NCBI GenBank assembly: GCA_946807835.1
Contig: CAMPEX010000001.1
Coordinates: 4,293,001 to 4,357,000, forward strand
Length of the DNA: 64,000 nucleotides
Direction: 5' to 3'
Source of the DNA: Ailanthus altissimus
Lineage: Eukaryota > Streptophyta > Magnoliopsida > Sapindales > Simaroubaceae
Part shown: one piece after another, positions 1-37,414 of the stretch
Layout of the letters: the number at the start of each line of letters is the position of its first letter
How positions within the stretch are numbered: the first letter of the stretch is position 1
Position numbers and translations under genes: made by a program
The notes under the pieces: model-generated
The model's database searches: none
Told to the model about the DNA's origin: nothing
The model's input: only the letters and a program-made list of their open reading frames with translations

Positions 1-206
1 GTAATCTGATACCTGTTATTTTGGGTCGTCCATTTTTAGCAACTTTTAACGCTTTGATTAATTGTAGGAGTGGAGTAATGAAACTTTCAATTGGAAACAT
101 GACACTTAAGCTCAATAGTTTCAATATGTGTAAGCAACCACATGAGGAGGAGGATGAAAGTGAAGAAACCGACATGATTGAAATGATTGTGGAGGATCAT
201 ATTTAA
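1..206 (+). pseudogene. Retropepsin-like protease, C-terminal end (G1)
   Basis: The frame contains the LGRPFLAT-type motif (here GRPFLATFNALINCR) that closes the plant gypsy aspartic protease domain, followed by the conserved MKL..GNMTL segment. The family cleaves the Gag-Pol polyprotein. The catalytic D-S/T-G region would lie upstream of the window. About 60 codons are open before a stop at 204-206. The linker to RT (207-590) is degenerate but still shows acidic, Lys-rich pol-linker composition. Confidence 0.8.
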
Positions 207-589
207 AAAAGGAGTTCTAGTGATCCTTTAGAAATGTGTTTAATAAATTTAATTGAGTTAAATATACAATTAGATCCTGAATTCTTTGACATATGTTCTT
301 TACTTGACTGTTCATAGGTAATTGAAAATAAAGGATGGAAATCAAAGTTTGAAGAATTAGGAGAAAATAAGGATAAACAAAATGACATTTCAAAGTTGGA
401 GTTGAAACCTCTGCCTGAAGGACTGAAATGCATTTCTTGAAGAGAAACAAACTTACCCAGTGGTAATCTCTTCTACACTCACAAGCGAACAAGAAAGTAA
501 GTTAATTGAATTATTAAAAATGCATAAAAATACAATTGGGTGGACTTTAAAATATATAAATGGCATAAAAACAAACTTACCTAAAACTT

Positions 590-1335
590 CCTAACAACCT
601 CAAAAGAGATTAAATCCATATATCAAAGAGGTAATGAGAGCTGAAGTTCTCAAATTACTTGAAGTAGGAATCATCAATCCTATCTCAGATAGTAAGTGGG
701 TAAGTCCTACTCAGGTAGTACCAAACAAATCTAGAATCACAGTCATTGAAATGAAAAATATGAGTTAATACCAACTCAAGTCTCATCTAGTTGGAGGATG
801 TGCATAGATTATAGGAAGTTGAACTCGACTACTAGAAAATACCATTTTTCCTTACCTTTCCTTGACCAAATTATAGAAAAAGTAGTAGGACATCCCTATT
901 ATTATTTTCTAGACGGTTATTCTGGATATTATCAAATTCCTATAGCAATAGAGGACCAAGAAAAAACTACATTCACATGTCTTTTGGGACCTTTGCTTTT
1001 AAAAGAATGCCCTTCAGACTTTATAATGTCCCAATAACATTTCAGAGATGTATGTTAAGCATTTTTAGTGACATGGTTGAGTATTATTTAGAAGTTTTCA
1101 TGGATGATTTAACTGCATTTAGAAATTCTTTTGATAATTGTCTTGAAAACTTAGAAAATGTCTTAAAAAGATGTGAAGAAAAGAGTCTTGTGTTGAATTA
1201 GAAAAAATGTCATTACATGGTTACTTCTGGAATTATTTTGGGGACATGTAGTGTCTTCTAAAGGAATTAAGTGGATAAGGCAAAAGTCGAACTCATTACA
1301 CATTTGCCTCCACAAAAAACAGTCAGAGAAGTCTA
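590..1335 (+). pseudogene. Reverse transcriptase (G1)
   Basis: Broken RT of the gypsy class, which would copy element RNA into cDNA in virus-like particles. Recognisable blocks are RLNPYIKEVMRAEVLKLLE near 607, CIDYRKLN near 800, the FLDGYSGYYQI block near 910, FGTFAFKRMPF near 980 and the catalytic box, here VFMDD, with FMDD at 1097-1108. Both catalytic Asp residues are kept. Frames change near 790 and 1000, and stops sit at expected Gln and Trp codons, for example at 1199-1201. The order and spacing are those of a full RT domain. Confidence 0.88.
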
Positions 1336-1339
1336 ATCC

Positions 1340-1890
1340 GTTTTAGGACATGTTAGATTTTATAAGAGGTTCATCAAAAGTTTTAGTGCTATATCTAAAC
1401 CTCTTAGCAAAAGATGTATCATTTGAGTGGACTCAAGAGTGTCAAAATTCATTTGAAAAATTAATTAACCTCTTAACATCTGCTCCTATCATACAATCTC
1501 CTGACTGTTCTTTACCTTTTAAGCTCATGTGTGATGTTAGTGACTACACTGTTGGTGTTGTATTTGGACAAAGAAAGAGAGGTAAATCCTATGTAATTTA
1601 TTATGTAAGTAGAGCTTTAAATGTTGCACAAATAAATTACGCAACAACTAAAAAATAACTACTTGCTGTAATATTTGTATTAGACAAATTTTGTTCTTAC
1701 TTAATTGGTTCTTCAACTGTTGTGTTTACCGATCATGCTATTGTAAGGTACTTAATGTCAAAACATGATGCAAAACCAAGACTAATTCAATGGATTCTAT
1801 TGCTTTAAGAATTTCATATCACTATCAAGGATAAGAAGGAAGCTGAGAATGTTATTGCAGATTGCTTATCAAGACTCGCACTAGATTCAT
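1340..1890 (+). pseudogene. RNase H and RT connection domain (G1)
   Basis: Continues from the RT. A block around FYKRFIKSFSAISK is reached through a frameshift near 1350, then SAPIIQSPDCSLPFKLMCD (1480-1540) with the first RNase H Asp in LMCDVSD, and YYVSRALN near 1600. The later block matches the ENVIADCLSRL motif near 1845-1880 that ends gypsy RNase H. It would remove RNA from the RNA:DNA hybrid. A stop sits at 1656-1658. This copy is not functional. Confidence 0.85.
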
Positions 1891-2099
1891 CAATAGATAT
1901 AACACTAATTAATGATTCTTTTCCCGATGAATTTTTATTTTCTATTATTACAATGCCTTGGTATGCTAATATTGTTAATTTTCTTGTAATAGAAGAAATG
2001 CCACCTCAATGGAATGCTTAAGACAAAAAAAACAATTTAACTGAGGTAAGAAAGTTTTATTAGGATGATCCTTATCTCTTCAAATATTATCCCGACCAA

Positions 2100-3776
2100 A
2101 TATTTTGAAGATGTATACCTGACAATGAAGTAAGTAGAGTTGTTGAATTTTGTCATTCTGAAGCATGTGGGGGATATTTCTCATTAAAGAAAATAGCTGC
2201 AAATATCTTGCAGTGTAAATTTTATTAGCCCACTTTATTTAAAGATACACATGCATTTTGTATAACATGTGAAAATTATTAAAACTTGGGATCTATTTCA
2301 AAACGAAACATAATGCCTTTGAACCCCATTGTTATAAAAATCTTTGATTGTTAGGGGATAGATTTTATGGGACCATTTTAACTATCATTTGGATTTACAT
2401 ATATCTTAATCGCAGTAGATTATGTCTCAAAATTGATTGAAGCTATGCCATATCGAAATAATGACCATAAAACAGTCATGAAATTTTTGAATGAAAATAT
2501 CTTTAGTTGATTTTGAATCCCTCGAGCCATTATAAGTGATGAGGGTAAGTATTTTTGTAATAGACTGATGAACACATAAAAATGCATATTTATTAAGAGA
2601 TTCAGTCACCATTTAATGTCACTAATTTTAACATTTTTGTATTTTTAGCTTGAAATAAAGTATTCTCATTAAATTATAATTAATGAATATTATTTGCACA
2701 GGTTTAGATAAAATGGACATAACTCTTAATGTAGAAATTAAAATGAAGAAATTAGTGAACCTGAAGTAACATGACTCAAACTTACACAAACTTGAATAAC
2801 AGTTGAAAATCCAAATCCAACATTGTATGGGTCAAAATTGGGATACAACAGAATTGGATTACAACTTCTGCTCAACGTGACCCACCTCACGTATTTGAAC
2901 CGTATTTTATAAAATACGTACCCAATTAGTATAATTCTTGAAGCTATAAAATACTGACTTAATTAATTTTCTCCTTTACCACTACTTTAATATTTTACTT
3001 CACCAAACTATTTTACCAAAAGCCTCCTCGCGCGATCGACACCTCAATCTATACTATGATAGCCGCATTACATTTTGAGCATAAACATAGGCCGTTTAAA
3101 ATATTAATGAAAAAAATATGGTATTACTCATAAAGTTGTTATCCCTTATGATCATTAGACAAGTAAATAAGTTGAATTAGCGAATAGGGAGATAAAACAA
3201 ATTTTAGAAAAAACTCTAAACCCAAATCTCAAAGATTGATCTTTAAGACTTAATGATGCACTGTGGCCTTATAGAACTACTTTTAAAACTTCATTGGGTA
3301 TGTCTCCTTATAGGATAGTTTATGAGAAATCTTGTCACTTACCTGTGGAACTTGAGCATAAAGCCTACTGGGCCATTAAAACTTTCAATGTAAATCTTGA
3401 TTATACTGGACAGATACATAAATTACAAGTAAGTGAACTTGAAGAATTGAGAAATGATGCATATGAGAATTCAAAAATTCATAAAGGTAAAATCAAAGCT
3501 TTTTATAATAAAAAAATTCAAAGAAAAACATTTGATGTTGGTCAGAAGGTTTTTCTTTATAATTCTCGACTTCACTTATTCCATGAAAAATTAAGATCAA
3601 GATAAAGTGGCCCTTTTATTGTGAAACATGTGTACCCTTATGGAACAATTGACATTGAAAATTTTAGGGATGGTAATGTGTTAAAGGTAAATGAGCAAAG
3701 ACTTAAGCCATTTCTAGAAAATCAAGATTTTCATAAAGAATTTGTGTCCCTGTCTGACCCTTGTTACAAGACCAAT
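2100..3776 (+). pseudogene. Integrase (G1), interrupted by a solo LTR
   Basis: The zinc-binding region (CHSEACGGY near 2150 and CITC near 2262) is followed by the catalytic core: the GIDFMGPF-like block with a stop, LIAVDYVSKLIEAMPY near 2410 and IISDEGKYFCN ending near 2563. The frame resumes at 3088 (RPFKILMKKYGITHKV), then [32 protein letters not shown] and the C-terminal [16 protein letters not shown] block, ending around 3776 with LKPFLE. The 522-bp gap between the two parts is exactly the solo LTR described separately. The core Asp at VDYVS and the D of SDEG are visible. Confidence 0.9.
2566..3087 (+). mobile_element. Solo LTR nested in the G1 integrase
   Basis: A 522-bp insert begins TGATGAACAC and ends CATAAACA, the usual TG...CA ends of plant LTRs. 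It is bordered by 5-bp target duplications TAGAC (2561-2565) and TAGGC (3088-3092), which differ by one transition. Removing it restores the FCN-RPF reading of integrase. A TATA-like TATAAAATA lies near 2944. No internal retroelement sequence is present, so it is best read as a solo LTR left by LTR-LTR recombination. The start resembles other Athila-type LTRs in this window. Confidence 0.8.
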
Positions 3777-4009
3777 TAATATTTGTTTTACATATTTACA
3801 TATTTATATATATTTATTCTTCTTCTAATTGTTTTTTTGTTTTTACTTGCAAGTTAATTTAGTATTTTTGTTAAAGTTTTATTTTGCACGACAATTAAGT
3901 GGCAAATAACGGTACTCCGTGACATTTCAAGTCGATTTTGTCAGTTTTTCATAATTACTGATACCTTATCTTCTTCCCTCTTTCTAAAAAAATTGGATAA
4001 CATTTTAAA

Positions 4010-4545
4010 AAATTTGAAAAAGCATTTTTCCTCATTGCCTCAAAATGCCTTAAAGAAAATTTACCAAGTAAGATGTGAAAGATTAAGGTTATTAATGATT
4101 ATGAATATACCTATTGATGTACGTTGGTTAATTAAAGCTAAAGTTTGATTGACAGGTGAATTTTCAGACTCATTAATTTCCTACATGCCTGGCTTAGGTA
4201 AAAACTCTTTTGTAAAAAAATAAAGAGCAGAATGATTAAGCGTTTGTTAAGTATGCACGCATGACTTTCAACATACGTTGCTGCATTTTAAGAATGATGT
4301 CTATAAATCGTGAAGATAAAATTAGGTTCATTAAGGATGGACAAAGTAAAGAGTCTTTAGATGATATTTTATCGACTCTTAAGATGCATCCTAGTGGATA
4401 TGTGCATATTGTAATTCATAAATTATGGGACATATTCCTAAAAGAATATGAGCGGTACAGTCTCAGAAATCTAACTTTAAAAACAAATTGGATGAGAAAC
4501 CTATCCCTGATCCATAGAGGGCGTTTAAGCTGTTACTGAACGTAA
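4010..4545 (+). pseudogene. Extra ORF of unknown function between integrase and LOG-like gene (G1)
   Basis: A coding-like stretch follows the post-integrase spacer. One frame runs from about 4036 (PQNALKKIYQVRCERL) through IPIDVRWLIKAKV and SLISYMPGLGKNSFVKK with few stops. A frameshift near 4230-4260 then leads into an open frame at 4261-4539 containing IRCCILRMMSINREDKIRF, SLDDILSTLKMHPSGYVHI and LWDIFLKEYERY. I see no signal peptide, membrane segment or known catalytic motif. It lies where Athila elements carry env-like or accessory ORFs. The long, mostly open frame suggests a real former protein, but I do not recognise the family. Confidence 0.55.
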
Positions 4546-4749
4546 AAGCAGAGAAAGATGTGAGCCACAATCACAACTACTTATATATATTTACTGTAAC
4601 TGTTATTTTTAAATATTTTATTTTAATCTCAAACGTCTTCTCCAATAACCAATCAGCCACAGTCGATTTTAAAAATTTTGCATTTAAAGCTTAATCTTAT
4701 CCATTAACAACCAACTACCTATGTGACTTAACTTTACAACACTTTTTGG

Positions 4750-4765
4750 CTCTATAAATATATTG
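4750..4765 (+). promoter_or_regulatory. Putative TATA box ahead of the LOG-like gene
   Basis: TCTATAAATATATTG lies about 70 bases upstream of the LOG-like start codon, leaving room for a 5' UTR of roughly 40 bases. The start itself (4826-4828) has A at -3 and G at +4, a favourable plant context. The spacing suggests the captured gene had its own transcription start rather than relying only on the LTR. This is inferred from motif and position only. Confidence 0.45.
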
Positions 4766-4825
4766 TATTATTTATGCATCTTTATACAACCTTAAAATAA
4801 TTCAAGAGAGAGGGTGAGTATAATA

Positions 4826-5425
4826 ATGGAAGGAATATCAACTCGTAAATTCATAAACAAATTATGTCTTTTGTAGATCCATCCTTGAAAAAATTAGAGA
4901 GTTTGTAAAGCAGCAAAAACTCTTGGTAAGGTATTAGCTGAGTGAAAATTTTATTTAGTATATGGGGGAGGTAGTCTTGGATTAATGGGATGTGTGGCAA
5001 TCGCTGCACAAAATAAAGACATTCACGTTTTAGGTATCATAACGAAAGCTCTAGCTGTTAGGAATATTGTAGGAAAAATAATTGGGGATGAGTTACAGGT
5101 ATCATCAATGCATGAATGAATGTCTTTTATGCTTTGAAATGCTGATGCCTTTATAGCTCTACCTGGAGGTTTTGAAACTTTGGAGGAAATTTTTCAAATT
5201 GTCTCATAGGCACAATTATAAATCCATCAGAAACTCACTGGTTTATTAAATGTTGATGGTTTTTATAATGAGTTGTTATCTTTTCTTAACTATGCCGTTG
5301 AAAAATAGTTCATCTCATCTATAGCACGACAGATCCTCATTTCTGCTTCAACTGTTGATCAATTACTCAATGAACTACAAGCTTTTACACTTTTATCTGA
5401 TCCAACAATGTGTCAGATAGATTAG
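4826..5425 (+). pseudogene. LOG: LOG-like cytokinin riboside 5'-monophosphate phosphoribohydrolase carried by G1
   Basis: LOG enzymes release active free-base cytokinin from cytokinin nucleotides in the cytosol. The 600-bp reading is colinear with a whole LOG protein of about 200 residues: MEGISTRKF at the start, a VFC-type strand at 4865-4875, LVYGGGSLGLMG (4957 on), HVLGIITKAL, the NADAFIALPGGFETLEEIF segment, HQKLTGLLNVDGFYNELLSF, and FISSIARQILISASTVDQLL. The family motif PGGxGTxxE reads PGGFETLEE, so one Gly is lost. Six in-frame stops and two small frameshifts (near 4862 and 4909) make it a pseudogene. Plant LOG genes normally have several introns and none is present, which points to capture through RNA. 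It sits between integrase and the 3' LTR. Confidence 0.88.
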
Positions 5426-6828
5426 TATACTAATGACAGTGAAAAAAAAATGCAAGATAGATTTGACGCTTCGTCTGTAGCCTATCTACTTTTATGTATT
5501 TTTAAGCATTTTGTGTAGCTTGTTTTATTTTGTTGCAAGTTTAATTTTCAATAAAAGATGTTTCAGGTGATATCTTCTATACTTTATTCTTTCTATATTT
5601 TAACATTGAGGACAATGTCTCAATCTGGTTGGAGGGAGAATAGTTGATATATAATATTATTGTTATTTATTTTTTGTTATAACTTTGATCTCTAATAATA
5701 AAAAAATTCATCATGAATGGCATGAGTAAAAGGTTCATTTATGCATTCTTGAGATGCATTCTAGTTCTAGAATGGCAGAGTAAGGAGTACATTACTGAAC
5801 CTTTGAAATACATTTTAATTGGTTTATGTTTAATGTATTTTACGTATATTTGTTTTGTTGCTTAAGTTTTTGGTAACTCTTGCGTAAATAAATTTGCTTT
5901 ACTATCGAGGTGTGATTTTAAAATTGTTTAGTTTAAATTATTTTTTCTATTTAGGTTATTAAAGAATAACTTCTTAAGTTATTTCTTGAGCACAATACTA
6001 AGCCTTGTGGTAAGATAGATGATTCAATATATATAGCCAAGAGAATTTTCATGTTTAAGTATACATATCTTTTGTGAGTGAGTAGAGAGGTTTGAGATAA
6101 TAACTTATGAACTTTCATTGATATTTTGAAATGGTTAAGTTTTATTTGGAATGACATTATTTGGGATGAGGAATAATTTGGTTACTTAACTAAAGGATTA
6201 TAAAAAAAAATAGAAAAGTATTATGGTGAGAAATTGCTCTTATTTTTTAATAATTCCTTACATCATTAAAATAAATACAAAAAAAAAGAAAAAAAATAAG
6301 GTATAAAAAAAAAGAAAAAAAGTCAATTCAATTCAATAAAGTCTTCGTTCAATTTTAGAAGACAAAAGTCATCAGAAAATAATTTTATCACAGGACTCTC
6401 TATTTGTAAGATTCGCATAAAATAATTAAAGTCCTTAAGCTAGCATATGGTAGGAATAGTTTGACTCTAAATAATTAATTTTTCTATCTTTGGATTAATG
6501 TTAGTTTGTCTGTCTATTCTTAAATATAACCTTTTCTTGAGTGGCTATCTGTTTTTCAACTCCATGAGTGAAATTCTAACCCATTAAATAAGTTATTCAC
6601 CTGTGAGGATATAGAGTTGAGACTTTTACTTGGAGAAAATTTTCAAAGCTATATATGTTGTGGTTTGTGGTAAGAAGACTTTGACTTAATTCACACACAC
6701 AATTTTGGAAGTTATGATTGAAATAACCTTTATAGCGATTGTGATATTTAACTAATGTTTTGTTTGAAATACTTAGGCAGTGTTCAAATTTTATTTATGC
6801 TTAAATTGTTAGAGACTAGCAATACGCT
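5426..6828 (+). other. Post-pol spacer of G1, no gene seen
   Basis: AT-rich sequence without a convincing frame. It contains the phrase ACATTGAGGACAATGT near 5603, followed by TTGGAGGGAG, typical of the non-coding stretch before the 3' LTR in Athila-type elements. Short A-rich runs lie at 6200-6320. Nothing else is supported. Confidence 0.6.
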
Positions 6829-6840
6829 GATTGGGGGGTG
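6829..6840 (+). other. Polypurine tract (G1)
   Basis: GATTGGGGGGTG directly abuts the LTR start TGATAAACAC. A G-rich tract next to TG is the plus-strand primer signature of LTR retrotransposons and fixes the element's orientation and LTR boundary. Confidence 0.8.
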
Positions 6841-8240
6841 TGATAAACACTTAAAATTACACATTTAATAAGGTTTTACATCATTATTTTGTATTAATAG
6901 TGTCTTTAACCCCCCTAACTTAAGTATGTCTACAATATTATACCCAATTAGCTTTTAACTGTTTTGTGGTAGGTTCAGTAAAATATGCATAAAATTTTAC
7001 CTAAGGATCCAATTGGAATGATTCTTGATCCTGTGAAGAGATGACTCAATGAAAAAACATATTGTATCACAAAGTATTTAAAATTCGAGCATTTAGAAGG
7101 TGAAAATGGCCTAGAATAGAACTGATATGCAGTACAAGCATAGTTCGAATAATCATCAGTTTTTGGCCCATAACTATAGAAATACCTATCTAATATGCAT
7201 AAGACAACTCAATTTGGAACGCTAAGAGACTTATCTACAACGTTAATGTTTTGAGTGACAGCTAATTCAGATCACATCAATTCTAAATTGGAAAATCAAG
7301 TGGGTGCATTAATGATAATCAATGTAAATTATTTGCCACCATTCTTCACTTTTATCATCCAAGTGGTTCCCTCTTTATTTGTCTCAATTTATCCATATTT
7401 TTCTATAAATAGGTAGCATGTTTATGCCTAAAGGTTGTAATCAGAGAACTAGATTTTAGTTGAAAACACTTAAATTTTGTATTATTTCTTTGTAGTATTA
7501 TTTCTCTTGTTTACTATTCTAAAGTCATATTATCTCTTCTTCTATCTCTTTTCTTTTTCTTTAGTATTGTTATGTCAAAGTAATTTTCTTTTTGCTAAGG
7601 TGAAAGGGTTAAACTCTTGGCAAGGTAATAAGACATACTTAACTTTTATTCATGAATTTAATATTTTATTCTTAATTATACAAATTTATATATGATGTAT
7701 TTATTTTGTTTGTAATAGTAATACTCTTTCTTGTAAAGTGGCGTATCTTGATTTATTATAGACAATTTTTATAGTTGACACAATAAATGCTTGAAACCAT
7801 TTATAAGATTTGGAGTAGATACCCTTTTTTGTAAAGTGAGAGTCTTGATTTATTATAGACAAATATAAAGATTGACATAATAAATACTTGAACTCATTTA
7901 CAAGATTTGATGTATAATATATAAATGGTGATGAACTTTAATTGTTACATCTTCCGATTAGAACCTCATTTGTGTGAGGATTGTAATTGAGTTATAAAGA
8001 GTTGAATATATTCATATTTCATATGCTAAGAGTGGATCCCCTTAACCTTAACTTTTATTTTAATTAGTTAATTGAATTATTATTTGCAAACATCTTATAC
8101 TGTTTTAATTGTCTTTAAAGTATTTATAGTATGTAATTTTAATTCTGTTTTCCTGTGGATCGACCCCGTTCTCATCGGGTTATTTATTACTTTGACAATC
8201 ATGCACTAGAGAATAAACTTCTATATTCTGGACATGTCAG
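6841..8240 (+). repeat. 3' LTR of G1
   Basis: Starts TGATAAACAC after the polypurine tract. It contains a TATA box (TATAAATA at 7404-7411). Near the end it has GTGGATCGACCCCGTTCTC at 8156 and TTATTACTTTGACAA, the phrase common at the 3' end of plant gypsy LTRs. At about 1.4 kb it fits the class. The exact end is uncertain because no 5' LTR is in the window for comparison. Confidence 0.75.
7726..7912 (+). repeat. 98-bp tandem duplication inside the G1 LTR
   Basis: Two copies, about 7726-7815 and 7824-7912, with a 98-bp period. Each has TTGTAAAGTG, then CTTGATTTATTATAGACAA, TTGACA.AATAAATGCTTG-like text and ACAAGATTTG. They have diverged at several positions. The duplication lies downstream of the LTR TATA box, so it is in the transcribed part of the LTR. 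Confidence 0.75.
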
Positions 8241-9570
8241 TAAGCTTATGCATGAGTGACAAATGCCACTAATCCATGCAAACACTTTGCATGGTTGACA
8301 GTTGTCACATGCAACTTTATGCATGCTACCATTTGTCACACAAATGGCCATAAATGGATGCTATATTTACATTTGCACTTTTTCATGCAAGAGGGATCTA
8401 TTTGTAACATTTGAAGACTATGGTACCCACTTTCTATATAGGTTCTAAAACGTATCCTGCTTTTTGAAATCTTTCCGGATTAATCCATACAATCAGTCCC
8501 GCTACTTTTATGCTCAACTAGTACACTTCATATTGTGAGACTCTCTAGATTCACACTTGTTTGTTTTATGGAACACTTCTGCAAGTCCATGAATGATGCC
8601 CCTACACACATTTCAGATATTACAAAATGACGCAATAAATCATACAAGTTGAGGTCAATCATATTCGTATAATCCTTCCAGTACCTATATCCTTGAAAGT
8701 GCAGAGATATAAATCATCACCATCAAATCTCTATATACTCAACCATAAACTTATCTCTAGATTTGTATTTTTGTAAATAATAGCTGCAAACGCCTTTGCT
8801 ATATTGTTTAACCATATGAAAAAACTCTTTTTGGGTTTTATGTTTGTGGCCACAAGACTTTCTAAAATATAATCTTGGAGTACCAGGATATATAACTCAC
8901 CCATATGAGCTGACATATCCTATATCTATACACACCAAACTCTATGGGTATCGGACTATACCTAACGACACCCAACGGTCAGACCATGAAAAGTTTCTAA
9001 AATGCATGGAACCAAAATATGATGGATTACTCATAAGCCCTTTATGGTGCTTAGGTCAAAGGATTTTAAATATTACTCAAGTTAAGAAGATCCTCTATCG
9101 ATGACTTTATGGGATGTTTATTAGAGGTCTTCGTGAGGCCGTTCAGTACCTAGTCCTTACTGAATACTTGCATGCCTATGCGGACTTCTACTAAGCCTAT
9201 GGTTTGCTAAGACTAACCATCTAAATAATTTAGATATAAACATACACTCTGGAGGGAATACCAATCAACCCGTGTCAGTAGACATAGATTAAGAACGATG
9301 TTTTCGAGAACATATACCACAATGATATTTATTAGTACCATTTGCAACTCTTTACAACTACATTATTATTATATTATTCTCAGGTCTTTGTCCTTATTTC
9401 AGACAAGATTCTAACTCTTTATAAATTGCTAACTTCAGCGCTGACCTAAACTCTTTTAAATTATATCTAAACTCCTTTAAAAGCTTCTTACCATATAATT
9501 ATGTATTAACTATTATTATTGAAATGTTTACTGTATATCAGAATGACACGTGATGTAGGATTGACTTCAA
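8241..9570 (-). mobile_element. Copia LTR remnant A
   Basis: Matches the 2.2-kb LTR of copia element D (58381-60570) over its middle and right parts. Landmarks are AGTCCATGAATGATGCCCC near 8586, ATATCCTTGAAAGTGCAG, the CATATGAGCTGACATATCC block near 8903, the CTTAGGTCAAAGGAT phrase near 9050, and the end CAGAATGACACGTGATG near 9538. No internal copia sequence is attached. The left end is truncated against the G1 LTR and no target duplication was found. Confidence 0.7.
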
Positions 9571-35679: not shown

Positions 35680-37414
35680 TAGAGGTAGGCAACTTTAGGT
35701 TTGGGTTGGGTTCGAGAATTCTTGAAAAATTCTCGAATCCGTTCGGGATGGAGAAAAGTGTCCCATTCGGGATATTTTTTGGGTCAAGTCAAAAAATTTA
35801 TGATTACTTTTCACATTAAAACAATATTGTTTTGATTATTGTTCACATTTAAAAAAAAACATTCAAATTTAAATTTGATTTCAAATGCATTAAATATTAT
35901 TATTTGAAATTCAATTACGTTAAATGTGATTATTCCAAATTCAATTTGGATTTAAATAATGTTACATATTATAATTTGATTAATTTGAAATTGATTCATT
36001 TCAAATCCAATTACATTAAATGTTGTAATCCTAAATCTAATTTCGAGTTGAATACATTAAGTATTATTTCAAATCTTATTTTGATACATTAAATATTATT
36101 ATTTTAAATGTAATTTTGATTTTAAGTACATTAAATATTATAATCTAATTTTGAGTTCAATTAGTAATTACGTTAAATATTATCTATTTAAATTACATTA
36201 AATGTTATTATTTCAAATTCAATTACATTAAATATGATAATTTGATTAATTTTGAAATCATTTTGTTTTAAATTCAATTACGTTAAATGTTGTGTTCTCA
36301 AATCTAATTTTGAGTTTAAATACATTAAATATATAATTTCAAATCTTATTTCAATTTGCAATACGTTAAGTTTTATTATTTCAAATCTAAATTTAATTTT
36401 AAGTACATTAAATATTATAATTATAAATCTAATTTCGAGTTCAATTAGTAATTACATTAAATATTATCAATTTGAATTACATTAAATATTATTATTTCAA
36501 ATTTAATTACGTTAAATGTTATAACTTTATTAAGTTTGAAATCGATTCGTTCTGAATTTAATTATGTTAAATATTGTAATTTTAAATTCAATTTTGAGTA
36601 TAATTACGTTAAATATTATTGATTTAAACTATGTAAAATGTTATTATTTTAAATTTAATTACGTTAAATGTTCTAATTTAATTAATTTTGAAATTGATTA
36701 TAATTTCAAATCTAATTATGTTAAATATTATAATTCTAAATTTAATTTTAAGTTTAATTGCGTAAAATATTATAATCTCAAATTCATCTTCGATTTCAAT
36801 TATATTAAATATTATCAATTTGAATTATCTTAAATGTTATTATCTTAATTTTGATTACATTAAAATTAAAATTTGATTAATTTTGAAATGAATTCATTTC
36901 AAATTTAATTATGTTAAATGTTATCATTTCAAATCTAATTTTGATATTTATTACGTTAAATATTATAATTTGATTAATTTTAAAATTTATTATAGTTCTA
37001 AATTCTTAAATATTATAAATTTAAATAAATTATAAGCAATTAAAAAAATAATGTTATTTTATTGATAAAATAATAATCTTTTCTATCATATATATATATG
37101 TATATTAAAAAGTGTAATGGCAACATATATAATAAAAAAAAGTGATGGGAACACCTCAAAAGGCAAAAACAAAGAAAGTGAAGTTTTTTTTATTGATTAT
37201 TGCATTCGTAAAGCAAAAGTCAAAAGGCAACAAAAGTAGCAAATGAATCAAAGGAAAAAAATTTCAAGTTCGAGAAATTCTTAAACTCAAACTCAATCCG
37301 TTCGAGATAGGGTATTTTGTCCCAAACTTGTTTTGAATTAATATTCGTTTTCATCTTGATTTGAAATTCAAGACGGATCGATTCAAAATGAGAACGAAAA
37401 TTATCCCACCCTTA
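35680..37414. mobile_element. hAT-like non-autonomous element filled by a minisatellite
   Basis: Left end TAGAGGTAGGCAACTTTAGG and right end TTATCCCACCCTTA form short imperfect terminal inverted repeats of the TAGGGGTGGxxA type. The 8-bp flanks TTTATAAC (35672-35679) and TTTATAAT (37415-37422) match at 7 of 8 bases, the hAT duplication length. Subterminal parts are also inverted: GAGAATTCTTGAAAAATTC and TTCGGGATGG on the left, CGAGAAATTCTTAAACTC and TTCGAGATAGGG on the right. No transposase frame exists; the interior is a 1.1-kb repeat array. Confidence 0.72.
35880..36995 (+). repeat. AT-rich minisatellite with higher-order periodicity
   Basis: Built from variants of a roughly 40-bp monomer with ATTACATTAAATATTATAAT and TTTCAAATTCAATTTTGA-like parts. 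A longer unit containing GATTAATTTTGAAAT recurs near 35964, 36242 and 36530, a spacing of about 280 bp, then irregularly near 36682 and 36876. In-frame translations (FNYVKCxxxKSNFE-type repeats) are by-products of the array. Confidence 0.8.

What the first reader, a model, noticed from the sequence alone, without database searches (positions are those of the whole stretch)
4826..5425. A full-length LOG-like cytokinin-activating gene carried inside an Athila-type retrotransposon
Seen: a 600-bp stretch colinear with an entire LOG protein lies between the integrase and the polypurine tract/3' LTR of G1, in the place where Athila elements carry env-like ORFs. Known: LOG enzymes convert cytokinin nucleotides to active cytokinin. 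Inference: G1's family transduced a host LOG transcript and kept it long enough for the frame to stay nearly colinear. A retrotransposon able to raise cytokinin in the cell where it sits would have an obvious route to favour meristem or germline proliferation.
Basis: partly seen in the sequence, partly recalled or inferred. Interest (0 to 1): 0.88.

Follow-up and report, generated by a model that had tools for sequence, protein, structure and literature searches.

The report
Jumping gene carrying a cytokinin gene
A plant retrotransposon present in hundreds of copies carries a gene of the LOG (cytokinin-activating) family next to a gene like the zinc-finger proteins of plant RNA viruses; both have changed under protein-preserving constraint, and together they would likely help the element by pushing the cells that hold it to divide.

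Summary
Window 4826-5480 is a dead, intronless LOG (LONELY GUY) gene inside an old Ty3/gypsy element, likely Athila (LTRs 86.5% identical, TSD GTAAG). It is not a one-off. In the window's own 939-Mb plant genome, 9 of 9 copies fetched with both flanks have LOG at the same place between integrase and 3' LTR; their LTR pairs are 96.7-99.9% identical, and 8 of 8 with readable ends have 5-bp target duplications. Two separate lineages carry open LOG frames. Between one copy of each, LOG dN/dS is 0.14. In a tree, 35 LOGs of this kind form one clade (99/98) apart from 16 host LOGs, with members from rosids and asterids.

LOG also has a conserved TATA box and a tail ending LxLxL, seen in none of 120 canonical LOGs.

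LOG in Citrus and Populus gypsy elements is already in print (PMC9289625). My searches found no paper on the two-gene cassette. Activity is untested; a lysine invariant in canonical LOGs is lost, and LOG-less derivatives also multiplied. New variant of a known kind.

The parts
1..3779 (+). Decayed protease-RT-RNase H-integrase part of the element, interrupted by a 521-bp insert at 2566-3086
   Evidence: Colinear at about 87-90% with 9 other copies; domains named by Pfam on the corresponding frames of L032
3993..4517 (+). Decayed NABP gene: zinc-finger protein of the carlavirus nucleic-acid-binding family (182 aa where intact)
   Evidence: Alignment to L032:8596-9144, which hits PF05515 Viral_NABP above its gathering cut-off
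4515..4588 (+). 74-nt stretch from the NABP stop on, nearly identical in both lineages; function unknown
   Evidence: 755 exact copies of a 30-nt core in the genome, control 0
4753..4760 (+). TATA box (TATAAATA) of the putative internal LOG promoter
   Evidence: At -73 from the LOG ATG in 29 of 29 lineage-1 copies, at -60 in lineage 2 although the rest of the spacer hardly aligns
4826..5480 (+). LOG pseudogene (217 codons where intact); stops and three 1-base indels in this copy
6831..6840 (+). Polypurine tract
   Evidence: Sequence read directly; same place in the eight other copies printed
6841..8239 (+). 3' LTR (TG...CA)
   Evidence: Pairs with the 5' LTR at L029:6110 on, 86.5% identity; LTR pairs of other copies
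8240..8244 (+). Target-site duplication GTAAG (right half)
   Evidence: the left flank ends in the same five bases

Best explanation
This is a Ty3/gypsy LTR retrotransposon lineage, likely Athila, with two accessory genes between integrase and 3' LTR, a zinc-finger gene of a plant-virus family (NABP) and a LOG gene that is likely of host origin, and it likely uses them to keep its host cell dividing and less able to silence it. Shown: gene order, copies, recent insertions, open frames, protein constraint between two lineages, the predicted LOG fold, the shared TATA box and the altered LOG tail. Inferred: LOG is transcribed from its own promoter just upstream; the protein hydrolyses nucleoside monophosphates (as cytokinin riboside 5'-monophosphates to free cytokinin) and may enter the nucleus through its basic tail; NABP, like carlavirus CRPs, would dampen RNA silencing and promote proliferation; cells descending to the germline would thus carry more, or more active, copies. 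LOG was probably captured once, through RNA, in an early eudicot element (no introns; one clade).
For: Same site in 9 of 9 copies with both flanks, LTR identity 96.7-99.9%, TSDs in 8 of 8 readable; the window copy itself has LTRs and a TSD. At least 300 LOG places scored in the genome in two lineages (150 of 6307 candidates; 150 of 6316, of which 134 without any stop by my count of the rows). LOG open in 18 and NABP open in 22 of 29 lineage-1 copies read, window included (mostly picked by similarity, so not a random sample). Lineage 1 vs 2, one copy each: LOG dN/dS 0.143 (67% aa identity), NABP 0.219 (76%). Model of the LOG protein: pLDDT 84, best PDB match 2a33, rmsd 1.0. Arg98 in 107 and Glu121 in 116 of 120 related proteins. 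One clade, 99/98, apart from 16 host LOGs. LxLxL in the last 25 residues in 93 of 120 against 0 of 120 canonical LOGs (a looser pattern, basic pair plus LxLx[LFP]: 95 against 3). TATA box at -73 in 29 of 29. PF05515 in 29 and PF01623 in 31 of 32 NABP relatives. Passages of PMC12172455 and PMC8839810: carlavirus CRPs suppress silencing; CVB p12 acts as a transcription factor and causes hyperplasia.
Against: No expression or enzyme data. Lys99, invariant in 120 of 120 canonical LOGs, is M, I or L in 115 of 120 here, and both glycine motifs are intact in 89 of 120 against 114 of 120 canonical, so catalysis may be changed or lost. 2 of 13 marker places on C1 (L052, L053) are lineage-2-like and lack LOG by one shared deletion, so LOG-less forms spread. 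LOG is broken in 11 of 29 lineage-1 copies. dN/dS between two lineages does not say in which cell LOG acts. The NABP model is poor (pLDDT 55) and its cysteine spacing differs from the carlavirus one. I showed residence in an element only for the two lineages of this genome, not for the other relatives in the protein database.
Confidence: 0.55

Rival explanations
1. Passenger: LOG and NABP were captured long ago and are carried along without benefit to the element.
For: LOG-less derivatives multiplied; 11 of 29 lineage-1 copies have a broken LOG.
Against: LOG dN/dS 0.143 and NABP 0.219 between lineages with dS 1.58 and 0.77; with the same number of random changes LOG would hold 6.6 stops on average and 44% aa identity, observed 0 and 67%.
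Confidence: 0.12
2. LOG kept its fold but changed its job: a nucleotide-binding or regulatory protein (basic tail plus LxLxL, as in EAR repressor motifs) and not a cytokinin-activating enzyme.
For: Loss of Lys99 in 115 of 120; tail motif in 93 of 120 against 0 of 120 canonical LOGs.
Against: Arg98 (107 of 120) and Glu121 (116 of 120) are kept, as expected for an enzyme.
Confidence: 0.28
3. Independent retrocopy of a host LOG mRNA that inserted later into a dead element.
For: LOG is intronless and a short A run lies near the end of the gene in the window.
Against: Same site in 9 of 9 copies with their own LTRs and in a second lineage; LOG of the window copy has decayed about as much as its pol (0.112 against 0.088-0.096 substitutions per site).
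Confidence: 0.01
4. The related LOG proteins are a host LOG subfamily from which this element captured a copy recently.
For: Database names such as LOGL10 in Populus; element residence was not shown by me for the relatives in other plants.
Against: The clade holds two deeply split lineages that are both multiplied in this genome; 37 of the 120 listed relatives are from Reevesia, with locus names on many chromosomes (my count); PMC9289625 reports the domain in Citrus and Populus LTR elements.
Confidence: 0.05

Closest known systems
YgdH/LOG domain in Citrus and Populus Ty3/gypsy elements (PMC9289625: section 12 and passages read; cites Steinbauerova et al. 2011, which is not held)
   Same: LOG-family domain inside plant Gypsy LTR elements
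   Different: In the text I read it is a domain found in consensus sequences; here gene order, two lineages, constraint, TATA box, altered tail and the NABP partner are shown
AlkB-carrying Gypsy elements of Phalaenopsis (PMC9289625, abstract and passages)
   Same: Host-like enzyme gene fixed in a Gypsy family
   Different: Other enzyme; activity was shown in vitro there, not here
Athila elements with env-like ORF between pol and 3' LTR (PMC6317226, PMC7264820, passages)
   Same: Position and sense orientation of the extra genes, no second RNase H
   Different: No Athila ORF-1 or env-like gene found; LOG and NABP instead
Carlavirus cysteine-rich / nucleic-acid-binding proteins (PMC12172455, PMC8839810, PMC8742542, passages)
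   Same: PF05515/PF01623 match, basic stretch followed by a four-cysteine motif
   Different: In a retrotransposon; cysteine spacing C-x2-C-x4-C-x3-C instead of C-x2-C-x12-C-x4-C printed for jasmine virus C
Grande retrotransposon accessory gene with own promoter, nuclear protein (only the title seen, in the references of PMC7264820)
   Same: Accessory gene in the 3' internal region with its own promoter
   Different: Another protein by its title; promoter activity is only inferred here

Membership tests
Ty3/gypsy LTR retrotransposon | LTR pair, 5-bp TSD, PR-RT-RH-INT order | tested here: met
Athila lineage | No second (archaeal-type) RNase H, which marks Tat (PMC6317226) | tested here: met
   Pfam at E<=1 on the frames of L032 finds only RT_RNaseH families before the integrase
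Athila lineage | Placement by RT/INT phylogeny | not tested
   No reference RT set at hand
Athila lineage | Primer binding site complementary to a non-Met tRNA (non-chromoviruses, PMC6317226) | tested here: inconclusive
   PBS TGGCGCCGTTGCCGGGGA read; its match to tRNA-Asp is recalled, not computed
Athila lineage | Athila ORF-1 / env-like gene (ORF-1 in 16% of Athila elements per PMC6317226) | tested here: not met
   [quoted passage not shown] the feature is not universal in Athila
LOG (type-I phosphoribohydrolase) | Sequence family and fold | tested here: met
LOG (type-I phosphoribohydrolase) | GGG..GLMG and PGG.GT.EE motifs, Arg98, Glu121 | tested here: met
   Present in intact copies L033 and L049; of 120 relatives 107 keep Arg98, 116 Glu121, 89 both motifs. 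In the window copy Arg98 is a stop
LOG (type-I phosphoribohydrolase) | Lys99 next to Arg98 | tested here: not met
   K in 5 of 120 relatives, 120 of 120 canonical
LOG (type-I phosphoribohydrolase) | Cytokinin nucleotide hydrolysis | not testable with these tools
   -
Viral_NABP / carlavirus CRP | Profile match above curated cut-off | tested here: met
   PF05515 31.7 bits vs 23; PF01623 18.3 vs 20.9, below; at E<=0.01 29 and 31 of 32 relatives match
Viral_NABP / carlavirus CRP | Zinc-finger spacing as in carlaviruses | tested here: not met
Viral_NABP / carlavirus CRP | Silencing suppression | not testable with these tools

The most novel reading that the evidence does not exclude
A retrotransposon lineage as old as the rosid-asterid split carries a two-gene growth cassette, a virus-type nuclear zinc-finger protein and a hormone-activating LOG with a nuclear, repressor-type tail, and manipulates plant cell division and silencing to favour its own inheritance, the way tumour-inducing viruses and bacteria manipulate their hosts.
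Probability: 0.27. Interest if true: 0.92.

Novelty: new variant of a known kind. Interest (0 to 1): 0.74.

Why it matters
Accessory genes of plant LTR elements are common, but the reviews I read passages of (PMC7264820, PMC11728184) call their functions largely unknown. Here two are recognisable, adjacent and conserved, and both belong to families tied to cell proliferation (LOG through cytokinin; carlavirus CRPs through a nuclear route). Open frames in many recent copies make the question whether a plant retrotransposon manipulates hormone or growth state directly testable. Annotation is also affected: many 'LOG-like' database proteins may be element genes, which matters for LOG gene-family counts.

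Tried and rejected
Rejected: later independent insertion of a LOG retrocopy (same site in all nine copies with flanks). Rejected from my own notes: that several database contigs carry both genes because their lengths coincide; most are too short to hold both, and only P0028/P0129 was checked (through L049). Scans of viral contigs with LOG, the LOG alignment and NABP found nothing. Codon ratios within lineage 1 (LOG pN/pS 0.14 for 18 open copies, 0.34 for all 28 non-window copies; NABP 0.35 for 22 and 0.43 for 28) are weak evidence, since most copies were picked by protein similarity; window versus L010 gives 0.76 (LOG) and 0.61 (NABP), which includes decay after death. A search for native LOG exons in this genome did not complete, so the introns of the native gene here were not tested. 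The NABP model was too poor to search. One paper search on CVB p12 listed nothing on the subject (20 of 750 listed). Read-through of the NABP stop was considered because the stretch after it is open; near-identity at all codon positions speaks against simple coding; left unexplained. Fetched but not used: L048.

Full report
What was checked. The 600-bp frame at 4826-5425 is a LOG protein from end to end: AtLOG3 (2a33) E 1.7e-46, AtLOG8 (1ydh) E 1.2e-43, Pfam PF03641 E 4.9e-29. In this copy it is dead: 10 stops in the fixed frame; 7 stops and three 1-base indels when aligned to an intact copy. The gene continues to 5480. The element is complete: 5' LTR left of the window, 3' LTR at 6841-8239, 86.5% identical, TSD GTAAG.

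Is it one element or a family? In the window's own assembly (939 Mb, 37 contigs) the LOG DNA matches 40 full-length places, the window among them, the others at 88-89% (40 of 2976 candidates scored; one further 160-nt piece). Protein P0002 matches 150 places at 92-95% (150 of 6307 candidates scored), and P0028 matches 150 more at 97-100% (150 of 6316 scored; 34 printed as 100%, 134 without stop by my count of the rows). I call these lineage 1, with which the window copy groups in the tree, and lineage 2. Nine lineage-1 copies were fetched with both flanks (a stretch of a tenth, L048, was not used). All nine are colinear with window 1-8239: integrase, NABP, LOG, polypurine tract, 3' LTR. LTR pairs are 96.7-99.9% identical, 0.05-2.4 My at an assumed 7e-9 per site and year. 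Eight of the nine were printed with full-length LTR pairs and all eight show a 5-bp TSD when I read the flanks; the ninth (L042) aligned over 1256 bp of LTR only and its ends were not read.

A sample not chosen by LOG. A 30-nt piece of the stretch after the NABP stop occurs 755 times exactly, its reversed control 0 times. I took the first 13 places on contig C1. Five lie beside LOG matches already scored. The other eight were fetched: six are followed by LOG over its full length, two of them as open frames of 217 and 215 aa. So LOG is present at 11 of 13. Two (L052, L053) are lineage-2-like, about 90-96% in the flanks, but jump from the spacer to the end of LOG. As LOG is in both lineages and in the wider clade, a loss that then multiplied is the simpler reading. 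It speaks against LOG being required in cis.

The second cargo gene. Upstream of LOG lies a 182-aa frame (L032:8596-9144; window 3993-4517) that matches PF05515 Viral_NABP at E 1.9e-7 (31.7 bits, cut-off 23) and PF01623 below its cut-off. Of 32 aligned relatives, 29 match PF05515 and 31 PF01623 at E<=0.01. It has a basic stretch KKRRAKRL followed by C-x2-C-x4-C-x3-C. Relatives are named in Xanthoceras, Acer, Populus and Rhamnella (120 of 547 listed). Lineage 2 carries NABP and LOG in the same order (L049). Carlavirus CRPs are described as silencing suppressors, and CVB p12 as a transcription factor causing hyperplasia (passages, PMC12172455; PMC8839810).

Selection. Lineage 1 (L032/L033) against lineage 2 (L049), one copy each: LOG 215 codons, 67% aa identity, dS 1.58, dN 0.226, dN/dS 0.143; NABP 182 codons, 76%, dN/dS 0.219. 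With the same number of random changes one expects 6.6 and 5.8 stops; there are none. LOG is open in 18 and NABP in 22 of 29 lineage-1 copies, both in 15. In the 28 non-window copies 16 of 17 stops differ from L010 by one C-to-T change; 13 of the 17 are at just two codons (161 and 132), so they are not independent events. Deamination of methylated C would explain them (inference). The window's LOG has diverged from L032 by 0.112 substitutions per site, its pol parts by 0.088-0.096, NABP by 0.095, its 3' LTR by 0.140.

Phylogeny and distribution. In a tree of 52 proteins the 35 LOGs of this kind (the window among them) form one clade (99/98) apart from 16 host LOGs including AtLOG8. The bootstrap had not fully settled, and the program warned of long branches (the outgroup, AtLOG8, and the Melia, Rehmannia and P0105 rows). 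Named members come from Reevesia and Diplodiscus, Xanthoceras, Melia, Populus, Paulownia and Rehmannia (120 of 7934 hits listed); Reevesia is a rosid, Paulownia an asterid. Capture before that split and horizontal transfer are both open. Residence in an element was shown by me only for the lineages of this genome (LTRs for lineage 1; for lineage 2 the same neighbours and hundreds of copies); for Citrus and Populus it is stated in PMC9289625 (section 12 read).

How LOG differs from host LOG. The model has the LOG fold (pLDDT 84; 2a33 rmsd 1.0, 5zbk with AMP 1.5). Arg98 (107 of 120) and Glu121 (116 of 120) are kept; Lys99 is kept in 5 of 120 against 120 of 120 canonical; both glycine motifs stand in 89 of 120 against 114 of 120. 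The last 25 residues hold LxLxL in 93 of 120 against 0 of 120; a looser pattern with a basic pair gives 95 against 3. That LxLxL is an EAR-type repressor motif and KKRK a nuclear signal is recalled and untested. Both sets of 120 are the top lists of searches with one query each.

Promoter. TATAAATA stands at -73 from the LOG ATG in 29 of 29 lineage-1 copies including the window, and at -60 in lineage 2, where most of the spacer no longer aligns. This suggests a promoter of its own; no transcript data were available.

Prior knowledge. LOG-family (YgdH) domains in Citrus and Populus LTR elements are in print (PMC9289625; the cited Steinbauerova 2011 is not held). Searches for NABP, carlavirus or CRP together with LTR elements listed no paper describing the combination (0 papers; 10 of 22 listed, titles and abstract starts only), PMC9289625 holds no 'NABP' or 'Carla', and searches around LOG, Athila and gene capture listed no further case (listings). 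The 2026 review PMC13317346 has no 'LONELY GUY', 'cytokinin', 'YgdH' or 'Athila' (NABP not looked for there). The library holds only open-licence papers.

Verdict. The new points are the two-gene cassette, the constraint on both genes, the altered active-site neighbour and tail, and the LOG-less derivatives.

Noticed in passing
window 4515-4588; L032:9142-9215; L049: 74 nt from the NABP stop on are nearly identical between lineages whose proteins differ by 24-33%, and predicted to fold into small hairpins. Function unknown.
   Followed up: partly
L052, L053: Lineage-2-like copies lacking promoter and LOG by one shared deletion that ends at the end of LOG.
   Followed up: partly
window 2566-3086: 521-bp insert in the integrase, starting TGATGAACAC like the family's LTRs and flanked by ATAGAC/ATAGGC; looks like a small LTR-type insertion.
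   Followed up: partly
window 4813-4818, and the same place in L032 and L049: GGTGAG conserved a few bases before the LOG ATG in both lineages; resembles a splice donor or conserved leader.
   Followed up: no
L036 (5' LTR end): The sequence after the 5' LTR repeats this copy's 3' flank instead of the usual PBS lead-in; may be a gene-conversion or assembly trace.
   Followed up: no
window 18288-19492/26087-27260, 45815-46808/52994-53999, 8513-9482/41570-40601: Further repeated pairs of 77-79% identity, probably other old retroelements.
   Followed up: no
window 35859-37026: AT-rich degenerate tandem array (periods about 284 and 152).
   Followed up: no
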